This document shows, in pieces, positions 2 to 23,437 of a stretch of DNA of 23,437 nucleotides (position 1 is its first letter; each line of letters begins with the position of its first letter). Below the pieces are notes generated by a model. That model did no database searches. It saw only the letters and a list, made by a program, of their open reading frames with translations, and was not told the DNA's origin. The stretch spans positions 1 to 23,437 of IMG/VR virus record IMGVR_UViG_3300046007_012096; one strand, 5' to 3'. The position numbers were made by a program, and so were the translations under genes. This stretch comes from a virus.

Positions 2-823
2 GGCCGGCGAAACGGTCTTCAAGTACTTGTTCACGTCCTCCGCGCGCGTCGGGAACAGCTTCTCGCTCGGAGACTTGTCCGCCATGAACGTCTTGACGGC
101 AGCGACCAGCTTCGGATCGCTGACCTTGCGATCCCACGCAACGCCGCTCTTGCCGGGAAACGTGAACTGAAGCGACCCGTCCGGGTTCTCCTTCACGTGT
201 TCTCGTCGCATCGTGGTGGCGCCGACAGAGCCCGTGAACTTCTCCGCGCCGCTGCCTCCGATGCGCATCGTCGTGTCATCGACCAGCTTCATGACCGTCG
301 CCGCAGCGCGCTTCTTGGGATCGGACGACTTCAGATCCTTCGCGATGTTGTCTTGGATCGTGCCGTAGTGCTTTTGCATCTGCTCGATGCGCTTGAACTT
401 ACGATCCGCCGACTGCTGCTGATGCGCCTCGTTGTACATGTACTTGTCAACGACGCGCCCCTTGATGTTCTTGTACGTCACGACCGCCGTGAGCGTCTTC
501 GATTGCGGGAACTCCTTCACGCTCTGAATCGTCGACGCGTCCACGCCCATGTACGACTGACGACCAGTCTTCGGATTCTTCGGCAGCTCCGCGAGCAACT
601 GATCGCGCGTCTTCACCACCGCCGCACCGTGCTTGCCAGTCGTCTGCTCTTTTTCGGCAGGCGCGGGTTGCGCGGCTTGAGCGACGCTGTGTTTGCTCAT
701 GTCTGCCTTCGGATGCGCTCGCAAGTAGCTTTGCAGCGCCTGCTGCGACGCAAACTCCCTTTTGCCGGATCGGCCCATGCCGCTCGCCGCTCGTGCCCAG
801 GTGATCAACGCTGACTGTCGCAT
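2..823 (-). CDS. DNA topoisomerase IB, partial (C-terminus outside window)
   Basis: I translated this strand by hand from the ATG at 823, which follows a GAGAGGG ribosome site. It stays open for 274 codons and runs off the left edge. Residues 110-165 match the N-terminal beta domain of poxvirus/bacterial-type topoisomerase IB: a K-x-x-x-G-R-x-x-x-x-Y core, then R-K-F-x-R-I and an acidic-Leu end. Residues 172-274 match the start of the catalytic domain: L-V-D-D-T-x-x-R-I-G with the expected catalytic Arg at 187, G-A-T-T-M-R-R-E-H-V at 201-210, and P-G-K-S-G with the catalytic Lys at 225. The other catalytic residues (second Arg, His, Tyr) would lie beyond the edge. Family members relax supercoils through a 3'-phosphotyrosine link. 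Residues 20-46 (a short F-x-S-x-x-x-L-x-x-Y-L-x-x-H-P segment) precede the enzyme and may be a phage-specific tag. It follows the coat gene on the same strand, an odd place for a topoisomerase. Confidence 0.8.
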   Translation of the reverse strand, partial: MRQSALITWARAASGMGRSGKREFASQQALQSYLRAHPKADMSKHSVAQAAQPAPAEKEQTTGKHGAAVVKTRDQLLAELPKNPKTGRQSYMGVDASTIQSVKEFPQSKTLTAVVTYKNIKGRVVDKYMYNEAHQQQSADRKFKRIEQMQKHYGTIQDNIAKDLKSSDPKKRAAATVMKLVDDTTMRIGGSGAEKFTGSVGATTMRREHVKENPDGSLQFTFPGKSGVAWDRKVSDPKLVAAVKTFMADKSPSEKLFPTRAEDVNKYLKTVSPA

Positions 824-841
824 CACTACCCTCTCAAAAGT

Positions 842-904
842 GCAGGGTCGCCGAGATGCGTTCCGAGGGGGGGGGGCACTCGGGGAAGGTAACGACGACC
901 CTGC
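842..904. other. Nested inverted repeat enclosing a run of ten G
   Basis: A perfect 9-bp inverted repeat (GCAGGGTCG at 842-850, CGACCCTGC at 896-904) encloses a second 5-bp dyad (CCGAG at 863-867, CTCGG at 879-883). The apex holds ten consecutive G at 867-876. It lies between the coat gene terminator and the topoisomerase start. Read on the minus strand, the outer stem is followed by ACTTTTG, so it could act as a second terminator or shape the topoisomerase leader. The function is unknown. Confidence 0.5.
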
Positions 905-930
905 GTCGCCATGAATAGCACGACTACAAA

Positions 931-964
931 CGAAAAGAGCGAGCCCCTTGCGAGGCTCGCCCTT
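931..964 (-). terminator. Intrinsic terminator after the coat protein gene
   Basis: A perfect 7-bp stem (GCGAGCC at 939-945, GGCTCGC at 954-960) with an 8-nt loop is followed, on the minus strand, by TCTTTTCG. It begins about 20 nt beyond the coat protein stop codon, where a rho-independent terminator would be expected. The T-tract is short, so read-through into the topoisomerase gene is possible. Confidence 0.65.
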
Positions 965-979
965 CTCACGCTGCGTCGA

Positions 980-1537
980 TCAGAGCGCGTGCTCGATCAC
1001 GACCGCGCGCTTGAAGCGCTCCGGGCCAGTGCCCGAGGTGATGTCGCTCGGGACCGGGAACGACGTGCTGATCTGCCACGTCGCCGCCACGGTGTCCTGG
1101 AGACGGTTCAGCGGCGCGCGGAGGATCAGGTCGATGCGCTCCGTCTGCACGTTGATGCCGCCGTTTACGATGTCGAACTCGCCCATCTTGCCGGTGATGC
1201 CAGCCTCAGAGACGAAGTTCGTGCCAGGGAGCCATTTCTCGTAGAGCGCGCCACGGCCAGTGATGAGGATGCGGCCGACGTTGACGCCCGCGCCGTTGAC
1301 GACTTCGGCGCCGATGTCCTCGCCGTAGAGCGAGTTCGCGCCCGTCGCGATGAGCGTACCCACGTTGTTACGATCCGGCGACTCGGTGTTCATGAAGAAC
1401 ATGATGCCGGCGATCGTCCCAATGAAGCCCTCGTGGTAGATATGGTAATCCGGGAGGGCGGTGTTGAGACGCTGGAACGCCGGGTCGGTGAAGACCTGCG
1501 CGTTGCCGTCGGGGCTGATGTGCGCGTGGTAGTAGCC
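980..1537 (-). CDS. Major capsid protein, C-terminal part (after frameshift)
   Basis: This frame continues the coat protein after the frame change near 1537 and ends at the stop at 980, giving about 185 residues. It opens with G-Y-Y-H-A-H and then contains I-Y-H-E-G-F-I-G-T-I-A-G-I-M-F-F-M-N-T-E-S. That pattern (a G-x-I-G-x-I-x-G hydrophobic strand ending in N-T/E) recalls the P-domain region of N4-gp56/P22-like coat proteins. The first ATG in this frame is at 1402, but the protein-like sequence plainly extends upstream to 1537, so a start at 1402 would give only a fragment. Joined to the upstream part, the product is about 451 residues, a reasonable size for a coat protein with an insertion domain. 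The capsid role is inferred from position after the scaffold and from overall pattern; the exact family is less sure. Confidence 0.75.
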   Translation of the reverse strand, partial: GYYHAHISPDGNAQVFTDPAFQRLNTALPDYHIYHEGFIGTIAGIMFFMNTESPDRNNVGTLIATGANSLYGEDIGAEVVNGAGVNVGRILITGRGALYEKWLPGTNFVSEAGITGKMGEFDIVNGGINVQTERIDLILRAPLNRLQDTVAATWQISTSFPVPSDITSGTGPERFKRAVVIEHAL

Positions 1538-2334
1538 TTGTTGACGGCGTTGATCGCGTCCTGAAGGGTGAACACATCACCCGCGTTGAGCGCGTCGACC
1601 GAGATGCCGCCACCCGAGCGGATCACGAGCGGAGCCGCCGACGAGATGACCGGAGCGCGGTTCGCAACACCGGCGCCGCCGAGAGCCGCGCTGAGCTGGA
1701 GGGTGCCGGGGCCATCGGGATCGTCCGGGTTGTCCGGGGTAAAGCCGATGACGTTGCGGGTGCCGGTGATACCCGAGATCGTCACCGTGAGCGGGGTCGC
1801 CGGCGAAACCGGAACCGGACGCACCGTCGACGACGGGATGACGACCGTGGTGAAGCCGTTGAGAGCCGCAACGCGGATCGTCGTGTCGCCCGCAACGCCC
1901 GCCGCGATGGTGAGCGTCTGGCCCGAGAGGTACGCCTTGAACAGCGAGTTACGCGGGATGCGGTTGAGCGACTGGCCAGCCTGGAGGCCAAGCTGGTGGA
2001 TGTTGCGGAGGAACAGGTTCGACGAAGCGGTCGCGCTCGTCGGCATGTTCGTGTCGATGGTGCCGCTGAAGCGGTTGAGCACCGCGGTCCACTGCTCGTA
2101 GTTCACCGCCTGCGGGCTCGGGTCGGTGCCCGGCTGGAGCGGCTTCGTCACGGGCGCGAGAAGGCCCGGACGCGACATGAACAGCTCGTTGCCGGTGTTC
2201 GCAGGCCACTCTTCGACGAGCGCTTCCTGGCGATACTGGAGCGCCGGGAAGAGGCCATCGTGGAACGCACGCTCAAGCAGACCTTCCTGCACGAGCTTCA
2301 CAACGCTGGGGGGAATACCAAGAACGAGAGGCAT
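1390..2334 (-). CDS. Major capsid protein, N-terminal part (frameshifted)
   Basis: The ATG at 2334 follows a clear AGGAG site and the gene comes directly after the scaffold, the usual place for the coat protein. Residues 1-140 are helical in character (for example L-F-L-R-N-I-H-Q-L-G-L-Q-A-G). Residues 140-250 are rich in Thr, Val, Gly and Pro and look like an inserted beta domain. Codon 266 is the last that looks genuine. After it the frame encodes a Ser/Thr/Arg/Pro-rich run ending at 1390, typical of out-of-frame GC-rich DNA, while the -1 frame carries good protein. One missing G at 1536-1537 (AAGGC for AAGGGC) would restore one 451-residue protein. It could be a sequencing or assembly indel, a real lesion, or ribosomal frameshifting yielding 314- and 451-residue forms. 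No classic slippery heptamer is present. Confidence 0.8.
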   Translation of the reverse strand: MPLVLGIPPSVVKLVQEGLLERAFHDGLFPALQYRQEALVEEWPANTGNELFMSRPGLLAPVTKPLQPGTDPSPQAVNYEQWTAVLNRFSGTIDTNMPTSATASSNLFLRNIHQLGLQAGQSLNRIPRNSLFKAYLSGQTLTIAAGVAGDTTIRVAALNGFTTVVIPSSTVRPVPVSPATPLTVTISGITGTRNVIGFTPDNPDDPDGPGTLQLSAALGGAGVANRAPVISSAAPLVIRSGGGISVDALNAGDVFTLQDAINAVNKATTTRTSAPTATRRSSPTRRSSVSTPPSRITISTTRASLGRSPASCSS

Positions 2335-14934: not shown

Positions 14935-15825
14935 ATGACCCCCTCCGCTCTCGCCAAGTGCACCGACCGCGTCAACAACCTCACCTTCGGCGTCGAAATC
15001 GAGTGCACGGGCGTTTCCCGCGAAACGCTCGTCCACGCAATCGTCAGCGGCACCGGCGGCACGCGCGTCAACTACACCGACACGGTCGCGCTGGCCGATG
15101 GTCGCAAGTGGAAGGTCGTCAGCGACGGTAGCATCCGCGGTGCGCACGGCTACAACGGTGGCGAGGTGGTCAGCCCCATCCTGCGTGGCGACCAGGACCT
15201 CGCCATGCTCCGCGCGGTTGTGCGCGCCATCCGCGAAGCTGGCGCGATCAGCGACGCCGCCTACCAGTGCGGCATCCACGTTCACATCGGCGCCAAGCAC
15301 CTCGCGCCGAAGGCCCTCGGTCGCCTCGCCGCGCAAGTCGAAAGCGCCGACAGCTTCATCCGCACGGCGGTCAGCGTCTCCTCCGCCCGCGAAAACTGGT
15401 GCCGCAAGCTCAACAAGGACACCGCGCTCCACCTCGCGCGCCAGACCACGCACACCGGCATCGCCCGCGCTTGGTACGGCTCCACCCGCGAGGCCAACGC
15501 CGCCGTCGACTACCACTACCACTCCAGCCGCTACGTCGGCCTCAACCTCCACTCGTTCTTCTACGCCGGTCGCGGCACCGTCGAGTTCCGCTACTTCAAC
15601 GGCACGCTCAACGACCAGCGCATCGCCGACTACGTCGTGTTCTGCCGCTGGATGGTTGCCCGCGCCGAGTACTGCGCCAGCTTCGGCCTGGAGCGCGCCG
15701 CTCAAACGCGCCGCGAGGCTTCCGCGTACCTCGTCGCCCTCGGCTTCAAGGACCGCGAGTTCAACGCGCGCTTCGTCGACAACTTCCCCCAGTCCGCGCC
15801 CGTCGCCGCCGCCGCTGCGGCGTGA
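14935..15825 (+). CDS. Amidoligase (glutamine synthetase-like COOH-NH2 ligase)
   Basis: A 296-residue member of the Amidoligase_2 type, glutamine-synthetase-fold enzymes that use ATP to join a carboxylate to an amine. Motifs in order: F-G-V-E-I-E-C (18-24, metal/ATP Glu 21 and 23), W-K-V-V-S-D-G-S (59-66), G-G-E-V-V-S-P-I-L (75-83), G-I-H-V-H-I-G (113-119, with the two His typical of the family), R-Y-V-G-L-N-L-H-S (199-207) and G-T-V-E-F-R-Y-F-N-G (214-223). All core motifs look intact. The ATG follows GAGG. The end is an Ala-rich tail. Family members are often paired with GGCT-fold proteins, as here. The substrate is unknown; candidates are peptides, peptidoglycan precursors or a small molecule. 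Confidence 0.9.
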   Translation: MTPSALAKCTDRVNNLTFGVEIECTGVSRETLVHAIVSGTGGTRVNYTDTVALADGRKWKVVSDGSIRGAHGYNGGEVVSPILRGDQDLAMLRAVVRAIREAGAISDAAYQCGIHVHIGAKHLAPKALGRLAAQVESADSFIRTAVSVSSARENWCRKLNKDTALHLARQTTHTGIARAWYGSTREANAAVDYHYHSSRYVGLNLHSFFYAGRGTVEFRYFNGTLNDQRIADYVVFCRWMVARAEYCASFGLERAAQTRREASAYLVALGFKDREFNARFVDNFPQSAPVAAAAAA

Positions 15826-15834
15826 TTCCCACGC

Positions 15835-15860
15835 GCGAGGCGCCCATGGGGGCGCCTCGC
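15835..15860 (+). terminator. Strong hairpin between amidoligase and first GGCT gene
   Basis: A perfect 10-bp stem (GCGAGGCGCC at 15835-15844, GGCGCCTCGC at 15851-15860), extendable by one more C-G pair over a 4-nt loop. It lies right after the amidoligase stop. There is no T-tract behind it, so it may be a partial terminator, a 3'-end stabiliser or an mRNA processing site that lowers expression of the downstream genes relative to the amidoligase. Confidence 0.5.
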
Positions 15861-15897
15861 CTTCCCCGTCACGTCCTTGCCCCTTCCCGGAGCCCGC

Positions 15898-16362
15898 ATG
15901 TCCAACGAGTTCGTGTTCGCCTACGGTTCCAACCTCATCAGCGCCCAGATGGAGCGCCGCTGCCCCTCCGCCCGCGAGATCGGCATCGCACGCCTCGCCG
16001 GTCACCGCTTCGCGTTCACCGGCTACTCGCCGACCTGGAACGGCGCGGTTGCCACCGTCATCGGCGACCGCAACGACTACGTCGATGGCGTCGTGTACAG
16101 CATCACGCCCGCCGACCTCACTCGCCTCGACGGCTTCGAGGGCGTGCCCTTCTCGTACACGCGGCGCAAAGTGCACGTCCGCATCGCACGCCGCGCGATC
16201 TTCGCATGGGTGTACATCAAGGCGCACACGCACGACGCCATCCCATCCCCCGCGTACTTCGCCGCTTGCATCGCCGGTCGCGCTTCGCGCGGCATCGACT
16301 ACGAACCGGTCATCGACGCCATGACCATCGCAACCAACGGGCACTCGCCTCTTCCATTCTAG
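15898..16362 (+). CDS. Gamma-glutamylcyclotransferase-like protein (YGSN type)
   Basis: A 154-residue GGCT-fold protein. F-A-Y-G-S-N-L at 7-13 is the substrate-cradling loop, and D-G-F-E-G-V-P-F-S-Y at 78-87 holds the expected catalytic Glu at 81. Enzymes of this fold turn gamma-glutamyl amines or peptides into 5-oxoproline plus the free amine. The start at 15898 is chosen because GGAG lies six bases upstream; the frame is open further up but lacks a site there. It follows the amidoligase after a hairpin. With the ligase it suggests a make-and-cleave pair for a gamma-glutamyl amide bond. Substrate unknown. Confidence 0.85.
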   Translation: MSNEFVFAYGSNLISAQMERRCPSAREIGIARLAGHRFAFTGYSPTWNGAVATVIGDRNDYVDGVVYSITPADLTRLDGFEGVPFSYTRRKVHVRIARRAIFAWVYIKAHTHDAIPSPAYFAACIAGRASRGIDYEPVIDAMTIATNGHSPLPF

Positions 16363-18113: not shown

Positions 18114-18611
18114 ATGAACATCTTCGTACTCGACCCTGACCCCGCGCGTGCTGCGCACTACCTGTGCGACAAGCACGTCGTCAAGATGGCGCTGGAAACC
18201 GCGCAGCTTCTTTGCACAGCACTCGCACTGCGCGGTGCCACCGACCTTCCGTATCGGCCTACGCATCGCCACCATCCGTGCACGCTTTGGACCGCCACGT
18301 CGCGTCCCAACTTCGACTGGCTCGTCGAGCACGGCCAATCCATCTGCCGCGAGTACCGCTTGCGCTACAACGGTCGCGAGCACGCTTCGCAGCGCATCAT
18401 CGACGGCATGATGTGGCAGTTGGACTGGCTCCCCAGTGGACCCGCGACGCCTTTCGCACAGGCGATGCCAGATCAGTATCGCACCGCCGACGACGCCGTC
18501 GCCGCGTACCGCGCCTACTACATCGGCGAAAAAGCACGCTTCGCGAAGTGGCGCCTCCCCGCGAAGCCTCCCGCGTGGTGGCCGTCAGACCTTGCGGCCA
18601 AGCTGAACTAG
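18114..18611 (+). CDS. Conserved phage protein, DNA glycosylase-like by recall
   Basis: A 165-residue protein with AAGGAG before the ATG at 18114. It matches a pattern I remember from many phage genomes: start M-N-I-F-x-L-D-x-D-P, then C-D-K-H-V-V-K-M-A-L-E-T-A-Q-L-L at 18-33, T-H-R-H-H-P-C-T-L-W at 50-59, E-Y-R-L-R-Y at 80-85, and Y-R-A-Y-Y-I-G-E-K at 132-140. Such proteins are often labelled pyrimidine dimer DNA glycosylase-like, but I cannot verify that and the similarity to T4 DenV is not obvious. The conserved His, Lys and Glu suggest an enzyme. Its last 27 nt overlap the end of the radical SAM gene on the other strand. Confidence 0.7.
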   Translation: MNIFVLDPDPARAAHYLCDKHVVKMALETAQLLCTALALRGATDLPYRPTHRHHPCTLWTATSRPNFDWLVEHGQSICREYRLRYNGREHASQRIIDGMMWQLDWLPSGPATPFAQAMPDQYRTADDAVAAYRAYYIGEKARFAKWRLPAKPPAWWPSDLAAKLN

Positions 18612-19547
18612 ACGCCCGCGCCCCGCGCTCTGCGCTTCCACGTCGCGCACCTTCGCCCGCTGCTCATCCGTGAGCGGCGGGTATTTTTGTAGGAGCCCCA
18701 CGCGCATCCCGCTCGATGCGTCGCACACTTTGCACGCGCCGAAGGAGCGGTCCTTGTTCTGCAAGTGTGCGCGCGCAGCCTCCATCGCTTCGCCGTACCA
18801 GATGTCGCGGAGCGAGGTCTTCGCTGCGGTGCCTGCAACGTAGTCGCCGACCCAGTCCTCGCAGCACAGACGAACCTCACCGTTCCAGGTCACGCTCATC
18901 TCGCGGAACGGCTTCGTGCACGTCTTCTTCAGCGGCTCGCTCGGCACCGCCATCCCCGGCACCGAACCGCTGTGATTGTGGAGCTTGCGCGAGGAGTGCT
19001 CGCCGTCGCGTGCGCCGATGTCGTCCATCAAGCACACGAAGCGGCGGTACTTGCCGCGATGGTTGCCGTACGGGCTCCAGCCCTCTTTCACGAGGTCGTC
19101 GTAGAAGTCGCGCACCGTGATGTTCTGCAACGTCGCGGCCTCTGCACGCAGCGCGTCGCGCTCAGGGTAGTACGTGTCCATCAGCACGAAGTCGATGCCC
19201 GCGTCGAAGATGCGGTCCAGCCGCTCCTGCATCTTCTTCATCAGCACCTTCCCGTTCGTCGTCAGCATCAACTGCGCCTTCGGGAGAAGTGCGCGGAAGA
19301 TGCCGAAGATGCGGACGTGCGAAGGGTTCTGCAGAGGCTCGCCGTGCATCGCGAACTCGATGCGCGCGTTCGGGTTCAAGTCGACGATGTCCTGCGCCAC
19401 CTTCGCAGCAAGATCCTCCGTCATGTACTTGTAGTTGCCGGGCTTGTCGCGGATGGCGTTGATGCCACAGAACGAGCAGATGCGATTGCATCCCTCCGTC
19501 AACTCAACTTGGAAGCACCACGGATGGTGAGGTTGCAGAATGTTCAT
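18585..19547 (-). CDS. Radical SAM/SPASM enzyme of the DNA-modification cassette
   Basis: A 320-residue radical SAM protein. C-N-R-I-C-S-F-C (20-27) is the CxxxCxxC site for the 4Fe-4S cluster that cleaves S-adenosylmethionine. H-G-E-P (68-71) matches the usual G-E-P SAM-contact element. The C-terminal part has SPASM-type cysteines for auxiliary clusters: Cys 210, Cys 228/229 (C-C-E-D-W) and Cys 272/275 (C-K-V-C-D). Such enzymes do radical chemistry on peptides, sugars or nucleotides. The start overlaps the TAGT-type gene by 4 nt and GAGGG lies upstream. It is the last gene in the TET cassette, so it may act on the modified base or its sugar. It could instead modify a peptide; the substrate is unproven. 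Confidence 0.88.
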   Translation of the reverse strand: MNILQPHHPWCFQVELTEGCNRICSFCGINAIRDKPGNYKYMTEDLAAKVAQDIVDLNPNARIEFAMHGEPLQNPSHVRIFGIFRALLPKAQLMLTTNGKVLMKKMQERLDRIFDAGIDFVLMDTYYPERDALRAEAATLQNITVRDFYDDLVKEGWSPYGNHRGKYRRFVCLMDDIGARDGEHSSRKLHNHSGSVPGMAVPSEPLKKTCTKPFREMSVTWNGEVRLCCEDWVGDYVAGTAAKTSLRDIWYGEAMEAARAHLQNKDRSFGACKVCDASSGMRVGLLQKYPPLTDEQRAKVRDVEAQSAGRGRLVQLGRKV

Positions 19548-20281
19548 CGCTTCGCCCTCGGCATCTTGAGTAGCACTTCGTTCGGTCGTCGGGGATTGTC
19601 CACCACGAACTGAGGCCAGCGCGCCTTCAACAACGCGATGTTCTCCTGCTCCAGTGCAGGCGTCCGCACCGCCACCGCGCCGCCCGCGTTGGTCCGGTGC
19701 TGGAAGGTCAGCAGCACGTCGTCGCGGCGCGCTACCACGCCGTAGCGCATCAGGTGCTGGAGCGTGTAGTCGTAGTCTTCCTTCAGCGTCATCGTCTCGT
19801 CGAACCGCAACGAACAGCCGCGCTCGATCAGGAGGAAGTCGCCCACGATGAAGGCGCTTGGGTGCACCGGCTTATCGACGTTCGCGTAGAACGGATTGTT
19901 GGTCGGCGCGGCACCGCCCAACTTCGCGCCGACTTGCGACATGCCCTTCTGGATCAACGACACGACGTGCCAGAAGTCCGCGTTCTCCGCGACCACCTTC
20001 TTCTCGCCGTGCACCGCGACTTGGATGCGCGTCAGGTCGTCGCTCATCTGCAAGCACGTTGCGCCGTGTGCCTGCGCAGCGTCGATCGCAGCGTTGCGAC
20101 TGCGGCACAGCCCGCCCGACTCCACGACGTGCTTCGCACCTGCTGCGCGGTACGCATCGCCTTCGCCTTCGCCAACGAACCACGTCGCATCGCCAATCTG
20201 CTCGGTCATCTTCGCAACGTTCGTTGCTCGCAGATGGCTGAACACCGCAACGTAGATTCCACCCAGGTCATCGCGGAGCAT
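19544..20281 (-). CDS. TET-associated-type glycosyltransferase (GT-A)
   Basis: A 245-residue protein fitting the TET-associated glycosyltransferase group by recalled pattern. G-G-L-C-R-S-R-N-A-A-I-D (56-67) is followed by M-S-D-D-L (79-83), the likely metal/nucleotide-sugar DxD-type site. Later come G-G-A-A-P-T-N-N-P-F (122-131), F-I-V-G-D-F (144-149), R-F-D-E-T-M-T-L-K-E-D-Y-D-Y-T (159-173) and a final A-G-G (199-201). In other phages such proteins are encoded next to TET/JBP dioxygenases and are thought to glycosylate 5-hydroxymethylcytosine in DNA. The ATG at 20281 has an unusually strong GGAGGTGAT site and lies inside the end of the previous gene (14-nt overlap). The sugar donor cannot be told from the sequence. 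Confidence 0.82.
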   Translation of the reverse strand: MLRDDLGGIYVAVFSHLRATNVAKMTEQIGDATWFVGEGEGDAYRAAGAKHVVESGGLCRSRNAAIDAAQAHGATCLQMSDDLTRIQVAVHGEKKVVAENADFWHVVSLIQKGMSQVGAKLGGAAPTNNPFYANVDKPVHPSAFIVGDFLLIERGCSLRFDETMTLKEDYDYTLQHLMRYGVVARRDDVLLTFQHRTNAGGAVAVRTPALEQENIALLKARWPQFVVDNPRRPNEVLLKMPRAKR

Positions 20282-21275
20282 TCATCACCTCCAAGTAGAG
20301 CTTCACCACCTCTGGCGAGTGCGCCTCCATGATGCGGCGCCCTCCCTCGACAACGTGCGCGAACGAATCCACCGGTCGCCGCAGCACTTCCACCAACTCG
20401 GCAGCGTTCTGCACCATCACGCACGAGTCACCATCTCGCACTTCGTCTTCTTGCCCCGTCGCCCACGCGCTGTTCAACACCAGCGGGACGCCCGCGTTCC
20501 ACGCCTCGAAGAACGTGTACTGCGTTCCACCACCGTCGCCCGCAATCTGCGTCAGGTCGACCGCGAAGCGCGCTCCCGCGAACATGCGCGTCGCCTGCCC
20601 GAACTTGTCTGGGAACTCCCCGTGGTACCACTTGCGCCAATCGGGATGAAGCTGGCGAAGCTGGTGGAACTCGTAGATGCGGTTCATCTCACCGTACAGG
20701 TGAACCGCCTTGCCTTCTTTCGCCAGCGTCTCGTTCGCTTCGATGATGTAGTGCGTGCGCTTGCGGAAATCGATGCGGGCCAACGCGAGCCCGTGCATGA
20801 TCTTCGGGATGCGCGGCGGTGCCGTCGGCATGAAGGGATGCGGCAAGTAGAGCGCATCGATGTCGCGCTCGGCCAAGCCAACGACGTTCGCCTTGCGAAT
20901 CACCAACGGTCGATAGCGCAAGCGGCGCATCAGGTTCAGCTCGTCGTCGTGGAACTCCGCAGGGTCGTGGACCACCATCGGGACGCCCAGCTCGATGAGC
21001 GGGATCGCTTGGTCGCCACACTTGTTCCAGAAGCAGTAGACGATGATGGACGTCTCGGCGCGCGCGATCTCGTACGCGTGCTCCTGCGAGCAGGTCCACA
21101 GTTGGATGCCGTACGGAAAAGACGAAGCCCGTGGCTCGGGCGCTTTACCGATGCGCCAGAGCACGGGCTCGTAACCCAGCTTCTCGAAGGACTTGTAGAG
21201 GTGGACTGTGAACGACGTGCAGCCGCCGAGTTGCGTGCTCGGGACCAAGAAGAACAGGTTGACGCGCTTGCTCAC
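20268..21275 (-). CDS. GT-B-like glycosyltransferase of the TET cassette
   Basis: A 335-residue protein with the outline of a GT-B enzyme. The N-terminal Rossmann-like start (V-N-L-F-F-L-V-P-S-T-Q-L-G-G-C-T-S-F) has the glycine loop at 17-18. The C-terminal half ends with D-G-G-G-T-Q-Y-T-F-F-E-A-W-N-A-G-V-P-L-V (247-266), which matches the donor-binding E-x-W/x-x-G-x-P motif of GT4-like enzymes. The GTG start at 21275 overlaps the dioxygenase stop by 4 nt (GTGA), with GAAGGG just upstream. A second glycosyltransferase beside the TAGT-type one suggests two successive sugars, or sugars on two positions. Donor and acceptor are unknown. Confidence 0.78.
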   Translation of the reverse strand: MSKRVNLFFLVPSTQLGGCTSFTVHLYKSFEKLGYEPVLWRIGKAPEPRASSFPYGIQLWTCSQEHAYEIARAETSIIVYCFWNKCGDQAIPLIELGVPMVVHDPAEFHDDELNLMRRLRYRPLVIRKANVVGLAERDIDALYLPHPFMPTAPPRIPKIMHGLALARIDFRKRTHYIIEANETLAKEGKAVHLYGEMNRIYEFHQLRQLHPDWRKWYHGEFPDKFGQATRMFAGARFAVDLTQIAGDGGGTQYTFFEAWNAGVPLVLNSAWATGQEDEVRDGDSCVMVQNAAELVEVLRRPVDSFAHVVEGGRRIMEAHSPEVVKLYLEVMNAPR

Positions 21276-22198
21276 CCTTCGTCTTCTACATCCTCATCGT
21301 CGTCCATGGGAACGGTGATCTGCTTGTCGCGCAAGAGGCGAAGCTGCTCCTCGACGGGCAGGCACTTCTTCATCTTCTCGCGCATGTAGTACACAACCGT
21401 GATGCGCTCGGCGTCGTCGGTGATCGGCACCATCGGCGTGACGCCGTGCCAGTCGTGTGAGTTGAACATCAGCAGGTCGCCGTTCTGCATCTCGACGCCG
21501 ACCTTGTACTCCGGGAACACGAGCCATCCCCCGGTGAACTGCCCTCGCCGAACCATGCCGATGACGCCGATGCCGTCCTTGTAGTCACCGCGATCGGTGT
21601 GCGTCGCAGCCGGTGCCACGTTGTTGTTGACCGTGAGCGTGGTGAAGGGTCCGCCTTCGATCAGGTACTCGGGCGGGCACTTGGCGCACGCCTCCATCTG
21701 CTTGGCGTACCGCTTCGGCGCAGCGGCCTTCATCACCTCGGCGGTGCGTCGCACCATCGGCAGGAGCGTCGCCCACTCGGCGGGGAACTTGCCGGTGAAC
21801 ATCGTCTCCCGACAGAAGGGGAAGCGCCCCCCTTGGCGGTCGAAGTAGCCAACGATGGCGCTGGCCACGAGGTGGATCTTGCCTTCGGCGGTGCGCGTCC
21901 TGCTACTCTTGCTGGACGTGCCGTCTTCCGCCATGGCGTACTGACGCGTCGCGCCAGCGTAGGCCCCTCGGTTGTCGGTCTTGTACTTCCGCAACTCGTG
22001 GAGCGCCGGGTACGCCAAGTCGATCACCTCTTCGCTGATGGCTCGCTTGCGGAACATGACGAGAGGGTCGCCGTTCGGCTTGTAGACATCGCAGTCGCCG
22101 TCAAGCCGAAGCGTCACTTCGGCTTCTGTCACCATCCGCCCGCGAAGGGCCTCGCCGTTACTGACGCGCGAGCGAAGCTGCACGACCGGTACGGACAC
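21272..22198 (-). CDS. TET/JBP-family 2-oxoglutarate/Fe(II) dioxygenase
   Basis: A 308-residue dioxygenase of the TET/JBP type, which oxidises the methyl group of 5-methylcytosine (TET) or thymine (JBP) in DNA. The family order is present: G-Y-F-D-R-Q-G-G (117-124) and F-C-R-E-T-M-F-T (128-135), then F-T-T-L-T-V-N-N-N (185-193), the iron-binding H-T-D (His 200, Asp 202) followed by R-G-D, G-G-W-L-V-F-P-E-Y (223-231), N-G-D-L-L-M-F (239-245), distal His 251 in D-W-H-G, and Arg 265 in E-R-I-T-V-V-Y-Y for 2-oxoglutarate. All catalytic residues are intact. The GTG start has a near-perfect GGAGGTGAT site; the gene overlaps the end of the ParB-like gene by 41 nt. The glycosyltransferase neighbours make 5-methylcytosine the more likely substrate. 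Confidence 0.88.
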   Translation of the reverse strand: MSVPVVQLRSRVSNGEALRGRMVTEAEVTLRLDGDCDVYKPNGDPLVMFRKRAISEEVIDLAYPALHELRKYKTDNRGAYAGATRQYAMAEDGTSSKSSRTRTAEGKIHLVASAIVGYFDRQGGRFPFCRETMFTGKFPAEWATLLPMVRRTAEVMKAAAPKRYAKQMEACAKCPPEYLIEGGPFTTLTVNNNVAPAATHTDRGDYKDGIGVIGMVRRGQFTGGWLVFPEYKVGVEMQNGDLLMFNSHDWHGVTPMVPITDDAERITVVYYMREKMKKCLPVEEQLRLLRDKQITVPMDDDEDVEDEG

Positions 22199-22859
22199 GG
22201 CGCATCACCTCCAGCACGATCTCACTGACAGAGCGGGCGTTCACGGAAGCCCCGAACTCATCCATCATCTGCACGAACTCCTCGTGCTGCTCCTTGTCGA
22301 AGAAGAGCTGCACCATGCGAATGTGAGGCGTGCTGAGCGTTGGCGTTCCAACGGGCGCTGCCTCCAACGGCGGACGCGCATCAGCGACGTAGCCGTCAAG
22401 CTCCTCGGCTTCGACCGCCATGTAACGCATCAAGTCGTCTTGCGCGATGCCAAGCTCCAGCCCGAGATCAGGAGCCTCAAGCTCCAACTGAATGTCGCGC
22501 ACCAGCGCCGCCAGCAAGTCGTCTTGGAACTTGCCGCGCTTGCTGTTCATCTTCACGGTCAGCGCCTTCGCCTGCGCTTCCGTCAGGTTCTCCAGGAACA
22601 CCATCGGCCCCTTCTTGAACCCCAACTCGCGCGCCACCGTCCATCGGTGCTCGCCGTCGATGATCAGGTTCTTCTTCTCGCCGCTCGCGTCGGTGCCCCA
22701 AATCAGCAGCGCCTGACTGCTCAGCCATCCGTCGGTCTGCAATCCGGTCTTCAGCGCATCGCGCTCAAAGGCCGTCATGCGGTTCGGGTTCCACGGGTTC
22801 GCCGCCACTCCCTCCAACGTCTTCAACTCCACCTTGCCCACAATCTTCGCTTCGCTCAT
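22158..22859 (-). CDS. ParB/Srx-fold protein heading the modification cassette
   Basis: A 233-residue protein. I chose the ATG at 22859 because GAGGAGG lies just upstream; the frame is open to 22886. Residues 11-80 form a ParB/sulfiredoxin-like domain: N-P-W-N-P-N-R-M (21-28), then L-I-I-D-G-E-H-R-W-T-V-A-R-E-L-G (65-80), the conserved D/G-E-H-R loop that binds CTP or ATP in ParB-type proteins. The rest is charged and helical, without the usual HTH and dimer domains of a chromosome-segregation ParB. It is the first gene of the five-gene chain and its end overlaps the TET-like gene. ParB-like proteins occur in other phage DNA-modification loci; target choice or a nucleotide-dependent switch is a possible role. 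Confidence 0.82.
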   Translation of the reverse strand: MSEAKIVGKVELKTLEGVAANPWNPNRMTAFERDALKTGLQTDGWLSSQALLIWGTDASGEKKNLIIDGEHRWTVARELGFKKGPMVFLENLTEAQAKALTVKMNSKRGKFQDDLLAALVRDIQLELEAPDLGLELGIAQDDLMRYMAVEAEELDGYVADARPPLEAAPVGTPTLSTPHIRMVQLFFDKEQHEEFVQMMDEFGASVNARSVSEIVLEVMRRVRTGRAASLARQ

Positions 22860-23437
22860 CGTGACCTCCTCGCGATTCACTCGCACTCTGCCTCGCGCTC
22901 CTCGCGCACGTCAAGTCGCACGCGCCCACTCGCACCCTCTGCACGCGCACGCAAGTCCTTCGCGCCCCCGCTGACTGCATCCTGCACGCGTCAGCCGATG
23001 CGAAGTCGCTGAGGGCAACTTTGTAAAATTTCCCACGGTCGCTTCTGGCCACCCCAGTCCATCAGGCCCCCCTTGAAACCCCCCTCACCCCCCCTGCGTC
23101 GGCGCGGCTTCGGCCTGGGCTCTGGGCGGTCGCGCCAGCGCCCTCCAGCGTCGCGCCAGCGTGACCACGGGGTCGGCTCGGGGGGCGCGGTGCTGAGCCC
23201 CTGACCAATCGCGCTAACGGCTCGCCAGGGGCGCCCGTGGTCCCTAACGCCCGTTTAGAGCCACGGGCACACCGGCGACGCCGAACGCGCCATCGCGCGG
23301 AGGCCCCTAGGTGCCTCACCAGCGCGATTCCGCCCCTAGGGGCACCAGCGCCACGTCGGGCGCCCGAAACGCGCGCCAAGGGGCCAAAGCGGCGCGGCAA
23401 TCCTGGCCAACGCACGCGCCGTGCCTTCTGCGTTTTT
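22860..23437. other. Non-coding repeat-rich region upstream of the cassette
   Basis: I see no convincing gene in these 578 nt. Frames that stay open are Arg/Ala/Gly-rich shadows. An A/T-rich island (23019-23033) in C/G-rich DNA could carry the cassette's promoter, but no good -35/-10 pair is seen. Beyond about 23060 come a 12-bp direct repeat (23128-23139 and 23149-23160), five CCAGCG copies between 23134 and 23350, a GCCCGTGG/CCACGGGC dyad (23233-23240 and 23261-23268), and two related GCCCCTAGG elements (23303 and 23332; the second a 12-bp palindrome). A 6-bp stem followed by T residues closes the window (23409-23437). This could be an origin, packaging site or regulatory hub. Confidence 0.5.

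What the first reader, a model, noticed from the sequence alone, without database searches (positions are those of the whole stretch)
2..823. Topoisomerase IB encoded behind the capsid gene
Catalytic Arg and Lys motifs are present and the gene follows the coat gene, far from any replication gene visible here. Residues 20-46 resemble a short segment I recall from other phage virion-associated proteins, so the enzyme may be packaged and injected to manage supercoiling during ejection or early infection.
Basis: partly seen in the sequence, partly recalled or inferred. Interest (0 to 1): 0.65.

Follow-up and report, generated by a model that had tools for sequence, protein, structure and literature searches.

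The report
Topoisomerase behind a swappable phage tag
A DNA-relaxing enzyme gene next to a phage's coat-protein gene begins with a small conserved tag that many phages attach to unrelated enzymes, and in a near-twin phage the same tag at the same place carries a different enzyme, so the tag is probably an address label that loads chosen proteins into the virus particle for delivery into bacteria.

Summary
In detail: window 823..2 (minus strand) is the start of a real type IB topoisomerase gene directly downstream of the major capsid gene. The contig edge cuts it. Arg187 and Lys225 are present. A complete relative (G001, 49% identical) has the remaining active-site residues, with Asn in place of His as in the Deinococcus enzyme.

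The remembered short segment is the real find. Residues 23-47 are a compact beta-alpha-beta microdomain, F-x-[ST]-x2-A-x3-Y-[LM]-x2-HP-x-A-[DN]-x3-H-x-V, recurrent in uncultured tailed phages. It occurs once or a few times per genome, usually N-terminal, on unrelated cargo: TopoIB, RelA/SpoT, ADP-ribosyltransferase, 2H phosphoesterase, DnaJ, pentapeptide repeats.

In the nearest relative (capsid protein 97-99% identical) DNA homology runs from the capsid gene through the leader and stops at the last tag codon. Beyond it the window encodes TopoIB and the relative RelA/SpoT. TopoIB is fused to this tag in three architectures. The tag is nearly absent from 257 Gb of cellular genomes and had no Pfam or literature hit.

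Best reading: a sorting module that loads accessory enzymes into virions. Packaging is inferred; no proteomics exists, and in huge phages tag genes do not cluster near the capsid gene.

The parts
2..823 (-). Gene for a tagged type IB topoisomerase, 3' end cut by the contig edge (274 aa visible)
   Evidence: ORF from ATG 823, SD-like GAGAGGG upstream; Pfam PF01028 E=4.4e-28; complete 49% identical homologue in L041
758..823 (-). Leader, residues 1-22 (MRQSALITWARAASGMGRSGKR), shared with tagged proteins of other cargo in the same phage group
   Evidence: Alignment of six leaders; DNA homology to L085
683..757 (-). Tag microdomain, residues 23-47 (EFASQQALQSYLRAHPKADMSKHSV)
   Evidence: Pattern scans with controls; AF2 beta-alpha-beta
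425..682 (-). Linker and TopoIB N-terminal part; DNA homology to the RelA/SpoT-carrying relative ends at 682
   Evidence: blastn boundary; homologous residues 50-74 of L041 disordered in AF2
8..424 (-). TopoIB catalytic core as far as visible (Arg 263-265, Lys 149-151)
   Evidence: Pfam residues 134-272
824..964 (-). Intergenic region between capsid gene and tagged gene, with a hairpin followed by a T-run (939-960 on the + strand) and a C10 tract (G run from 867 on the + strand); conserved in L085
   Evidence: the automatic terminator scan did not call it
980..2334 (-). Major capsid protein gene, frame broken in the window by a 34-nt deletion near 1537 relative to L085; relatives have one open frame
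   Evidence: phrog_1357 for both halves

Best explanation
The gene encodes an accessory, particle-loaded type IB topoisomerase. Its first 47 residues are a modular sorting element: a flexible leader and a roughly 25-residue beta-alpha-beta tag, followed by a flexible linker and the enzyme. The tag is proposed to bind a component of the assembling head or neck (scaffold, inner capsid surface or portal), so that whatever is fused to it enters the virion and is ejected with the DNA. The place behind the capsid gene is an exchangeable cargo slot: TopoIB here, a RelA/SpoT alarmone-synthetase-like domain in the closest relative. The delivered TopoIB would relax the incoming genome without ATP before other topoisomerases act, helping circularisation or early transcription. 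SHOWN: TopoIB identity; the tag as a real, recurrent, essentially virus-specific module; its use on many cargos; the cargo swap at the tag boundary; the location in the head-neck block in this phage group. INFERRED: virion loading, binding partner, ejection, and the role in infection.
For: DNA homology with the nearest relative ends at the last tag codon and the cargo behind it differs, TopoIB against RelA/SpoT. TopoIB is joined to the tag in three architectures: N-terminal tag (window, L041), tag upstream inside a giant polyvalent protein (L033), C-terminal tag (L183). Other recognised cargo matches the repertoire of injected polyvalent proteins: RelA/SpoT, ADP-ribosyltransferase, 2H phosphoesterase. 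In the window's group all five tagged genes of four contigs lie in the head-neck block within about 3 kb of the capsid gene, and L089 lacks the gene, so it is accessory. The tag is essentially viral: 1 genuine copy in 257 Gb of cell genomes against more than 70 stretches in IMG/VR. It is an independent small fold on flexible linkers and is mostly N-terminal (58 of 71 within 60 aa, 21.6 expected).
Against: No virion proteomics. In 28 huge-phage contigs tagged genes are not concentrated near the capsid gene (6 of 44 within 10 kb, 4.7 expected, P=0.32). Huge relatives phage G, Tunturi_5 and LR745208 lack the tag. Most tagged proteins have no recognised domain, so the effector-like repertoire rests on a minority. 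TopoIB of phage Motura sits among non-virion genes without the tag. No binding partner was identified.
Confidence: 0.55

Rival explanations
1. The tag is a docking module for something other than the virion, for example a membrane, a phage compartment or a common host protein, and tagged enzymes are made and used inside the infected cell.
For: Tagged genes scatter over huge genomes. A recurrent tagged protein family has long hydrophobic stretches (sequences).
Against: In the window's group the tagged genes sit only in the head-neck block. The recognised cargos are host-directed effector types, not replication enzymes.
Confidence: 0.25
2. Ordinary phage replication or repair TopoIB that happens to lie behind the capsid gene; the N-terminal segment is a passive domain without a targeting role.
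For: Jumbo phages encode TopoIB listed among replication and repair functions (PMC7824862); the Motura gene lies near an ssDNA-binding protein gene.
Against: The same leader and tag precede RelA/SpoT at the same place and other unrelated domains elsewhere. Independent tag fusions to TopoIB in different architectures.
Confidence: 0.12
3. The tag is a metal- or nucleic-acid-binding microdomain (H-x3-[DN]-x3-H) that serves the enzymes directly, for example holding them on DNA.
For: H-x3-D-x3-H spacing; the last His is kept even where not selected for.
Against: D13 varies to N or K; cargos have unrelated chemistry; the module is set apart by disordered linkers.
Confidence: 0.06

Closest known systems
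Type IB topoisomerases (PF01028): Deinococcus TopoIB (2f4q), Caldiarchaeum Top1 (6z01), human Top1; phage TopoIBs of Achromobacter phage Motura and Xanthomonas phage PhiXhv-15
   Same: Catalytic core, Arg and Lys motifs; full active-site set in the L041 homologue; fold match
   Different: Carries the N-terminal tag and linker; encoded behind the capsid gene; only 24-34% identical to phage TopoIBs in the isolate collection
T4 capsid targeting sequence of internal proteins IPI-III (PMC9026906)
   Same: In effect, a short mostly N-terminal element shared by otherwise different proteins; T4 internal proteins and Alt are packaged and act in host take-over
   Different: The T4 signal is about 10 residues, N-terminal and removed by the prohead protease; this tag is about 25 residues with a predicted fold, can be internal, repeated or C-terminal, and no cleavage is known. 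Works like it at most; not a member
Polyvalent proteins of phages and conjugative elements (PMC5512222)
   Same: Overlapping cargo (RelA/SpoT, ADP-ribosyltransferase, 2H phosphoesterase); L033 is itself a multi-domain polyvalent protein containing the tag and TopoIB
   Different: The window protein is a single-enzyme fusion; that paper's text names no topoisomerase domain and no targeting signal
Poxvirus topoisomerase IB
   Same: A viral TopoIB; from general knowledge it is carried in the virion core and aids early transcription (listed as H6R, late gene, PMC11980589)
   Different: No such tag is known; eukaryotic virus; analogy only

Membership tests
Type IB topoisomerase | Match to the catalytic-core profile | tested here: met
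   PF01028 E=4.4e-28, cut-off 23.7 bits, score 98.6
Type IB topoisomerase | First catalytic Arg and catalytic Lys | tested here: met
   R187, K225
Type IB topoisomerase | Second Arg, His (or Asn) and the Tyr nucleophile | tested here: inconclusive
   Beyond the contig end in the window; present in the 49% identical L041 homologue as R (KDFRTH), N (LNNTP), Y (KKYINP)
Type IB topoisomerase | ATP-independent relaxation activity | not testable with these tools
   Needs an assay
T4-type capsid targeting sequence | About 10-residue N-terminal propeptide removed by the prohead protease | tested here: not met
   The tag is about 25 residues and may be internal or C-terminal; cleavage itself not testable here
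T4-type capsid targeting sequence | Directs fused proteins into the head | not testable with these tools
   No proteomics; context only
Polyvalent proteins (Iyer 2017) | Two or more effector domains in one chain | tested here: not met
   One recognised domain in the visible part of the window protein; met by tagged relatives L033 and L183
Known tag or domain family | Residues 23-47 match a described family | tested here: not met
   No Pfam family shared by the tagged proteins; NCBIfam best E=0.017; weak overlap with a 41-position PHROG of unknown function, phrog_5432, 15 of 75 members, best E=2.7e-4

The most novel reading that the evidence does not exclude
A previously undescribed viral sorting code: a 25-residue beta-alpha-beta microdomain that uncultured and huge tailed phages fuse to interchangeable enzymes (TopoIB, RelA/SpoT, ADP-ribosyltransferases and others) to load them into virions and deliver them on infection, with a cargo-exchange slot behind the capsid gene in the window's phage group.
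Probability: 0.5. Interest if true: 0.85.

Novelty: new variant of a known kind. Interest (0 to 1): 0.7.

Why it matters
If the tag is a virion-loading signal, finding it in a phage genome predicts which unannotated proteins are delivered into the host, which would turn part of the unknown genes of huge phages into a testable effector list. A particle-borne phage TopoIB would parallel the poxvirus enzyme. Even if it is not a loading signal, a virus-specific module shared by unrelated enzymes, with cargo exchange at its DNA boundary, is unexplained and directly testable.

Tried and rejected
Similarity of the N-terminus to an integrase of Escherichia phage Cyrano: E about 3-4, internal match, chance. 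A C-terminal motif of the Xanthomonas phage TopoIB as a variant of the tag: found in only one protein of that genome, not supported. Tag genes clustering near the capsid gene in huge phages: tested, not supported. PHROG tallies of huge-phage neighbours against control stretches: only suggestive. PDB, NCBIfam and phrog_5432 matches to the tag: weak and short, treated as chance or unresolved. The first version of the second DNA pattern was out of frame by one base; it is used only as a negative control. Contractile-sheath marker PF04984: absent in all 34 tag-bearing large contigs, uninformative. Literature strings for the motif: none found. PaBG structural-proteome paper: the passages found do not name TopoIB as a virion protein.

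Full report
CHECK OF THE OBSERVATION. The window is a whole 23,437-base IMG/VR virus record, so the gene cannot be read further. On the minus strand an ORF with ATG at 823, preceded by GAGAGGG, runs off the contig at base 2. Pfam gives Topoisom_I at E=4.4e-28 for residues 134-272 and a PDB sequence search gives only TopoIBs. R187 and K225 are the first catalytic Arg and the Lys. The remaining catalytic residues are outside the window. The 49% identical homologue in contig G001 (L041) has them: KDFRTH, LNNTP and KKYINP. It aligns with Deinococcus TopoIB, which has the same Asn, and its AF2 model matches TopoIB structures. The gene lies directly behind the major capsid gene, in a block with terminase, portal, MuF-like and other head genes.

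THE REMEMBERED SEGMENT. Residues 23-47 proved to be the key. A degenerate DNA pattern for A-x3-Y-x3-HP-x-AD-x2-[KN]-H found 76 stretches in IMG/VR, and they encode the extended motif in open frames. Positions the pattern did not fix are strongly conserved: F or H, then S/T/N before, L/M inside, V/I after. A second pattern that left D13, H17 and V19 free found 72 stretches; of 19 newly listed copies 18 keep H17 and V19, the other looking like a chance hit. The same pattern shifted by one base, run by mistake, found 7. The first pattern in 257 Gb of bacterial and archaeal genomes found 15 hits, of which one carries the extended motif, on a 17.6 kb contig of a metagenome-assembled genome. The tag is therefore essentially viral. 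It was not found in 50,697 isolate phage records by tblastn at E<=10, although low-complexity masking of lysine-rich queries could hide copies. It has no Pfam model, and its peptide strings are in no held paper.

ANATOMY. AF2 of the G001 protein shows the tag as strand-helix-strand (22-24, 27-36, 45-47; pLDDT about 75-82) between disordered residues 1-20 and 50-74, ahead of a well-folded TopoIB. A separate prediction of the tag alone with 75 sequences gives the same elements. The first tag lies within 60 residues of the assumed N-terminus in 58 of 71 proteins, against 21.6 expected for uniform placement, but it can be internal, repeated or C-terminal.

CARGO. Pfam on 71 tagged proteins found TopoIB (3), RelA_SpoT, poly(A)/CCA nucleotidyltransferase, 2H phosphoesterase, two ADP-ribosyltransferase families, DnaJ and pentapeptide repeats. 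Later scans added HAD+TopoIB with a C-terminal tag (L183) and weak Zeta-toxin-like and RelA-like matches, and by eye a recurrent protein with long hydrophobic stretches. This overlaps the repertoire described for polyvalent proteins injected by phages (PMC5512222); that paper's text names no targeting signal. Most tagged proteins have no recognised domain.

CARGO SWAP. The closest relative, G002/L085 (capsid protein 97-99%, portal 94%), has at the same place a protein with the same leader and tag but a RelA_SpoT domain (E=2.2e-16). Nucleotide homology runs without a break through the capsid gene, the intergenic region with its hairpin, and the leader and tag, and stops at window base 682, next to the last tag codon. 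A second tagged protein and a C39-like peptidase follow in L085. G001 has the tagged TopoIB after the capsid, C39-like and head-completion genes. L002/L003 (contigs G004, G005) have a tagged low-complexity protein in the same block, ahead of neck and sheath-like genes. L089 lacks a tagged gene there, so the slot is accessory.

HUGE PHAGES. Of 34 large tag-bearing contigs, 29 carry one capsid family, phrog_2522, related to Bacillus phage G, Tunturi_5 and LR745208. The window's group matches a different capsid profile, phrog_1357, so the tag spans at least two phage lineages. In the huge phages tag genes are not concentrated near the capsid gene. This is a real limit on the packaging argument. 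Phage G, Tunturi_5 and LR745208 themselves gave no tag match.

MECHANISM. The most economical account is a sorting module that takes accessory enzymes into the particle, like the T4 capsid targeting sequence in effect (PMC9026906) but not a member of it, since length and position differ. The delivered TopoIB would relax the incoming genome. Shown: enzyme identity, the tag family, the cargo swap, and position in this group. Inferred: loading, partner, ejection, role.

NOVELTY AND LIMITS. TopoIBs in jumbo phages are known (PMC7824862). The tag, its multi-cargo use and the DNA-level swap at its boundary were not found described in the libraries searched. Much published work is outside those libraries, and the functional claim rests on context only.

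Noticed in passing
window near 1537 (capsid gene, minus strand): The capsid gene is frame-broken by a 34-nt deletion relative to L085; all relatives have one open frame. Either an assembly error or a real defect.
   Followed up: partly
window 867-876 (+ strand G run, 44 nt upstream of the tagged gene): Homopolymer tract of 10 in the window against 7 in L085 in front of the tagged gene; could be assembly noise or a length-variable tract.
   Followed up: no
L085 18500-19351: Second tagged protein whose N-terminus ([38 protein letters not shown]), followed by two C-x2-C pairs, resembles the start of the C39-like peptidase gene of L084 (19764-20597): possibly another recurring N-terminal module.
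   Followed up: no
L033 2324-8245: Polyvalent protein of about 2000 aa with nucleotidyltransferase, intein/LAGLIDADG, 2H phosphoesterase, tag and TopoIB; comparable giant proteins with TopoIB in L155 and L156.
   Followed up: partly
L084 4144-6912: Terminase large subunit gene split by about 1 kb of inserted sequence (residues up to 463 and from 436), perhaps an intron or intein.
   Followed up: no
window 18585-22886: Radical-SAM-like, glycosyltransferase-like, tgt-like (phrog_24024, phrog_6059) and ParB-like genes in a row; may be a DNA modification set.
   Followed up: no
window 14935-16362 (+ strand): An amidoligase-like gene (phrog_2443, E=6e-53) and a following ORF in the same frame lie opposite to the virion genes.
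   Followed up: no
L169-L175 tagged proteins: Many tagged proteins of huge phages also carry a repeated stretch like LIKLAHxxPELRxxLLPLL near one or both ends, perhaps a second terminal module.
   Followed up: no
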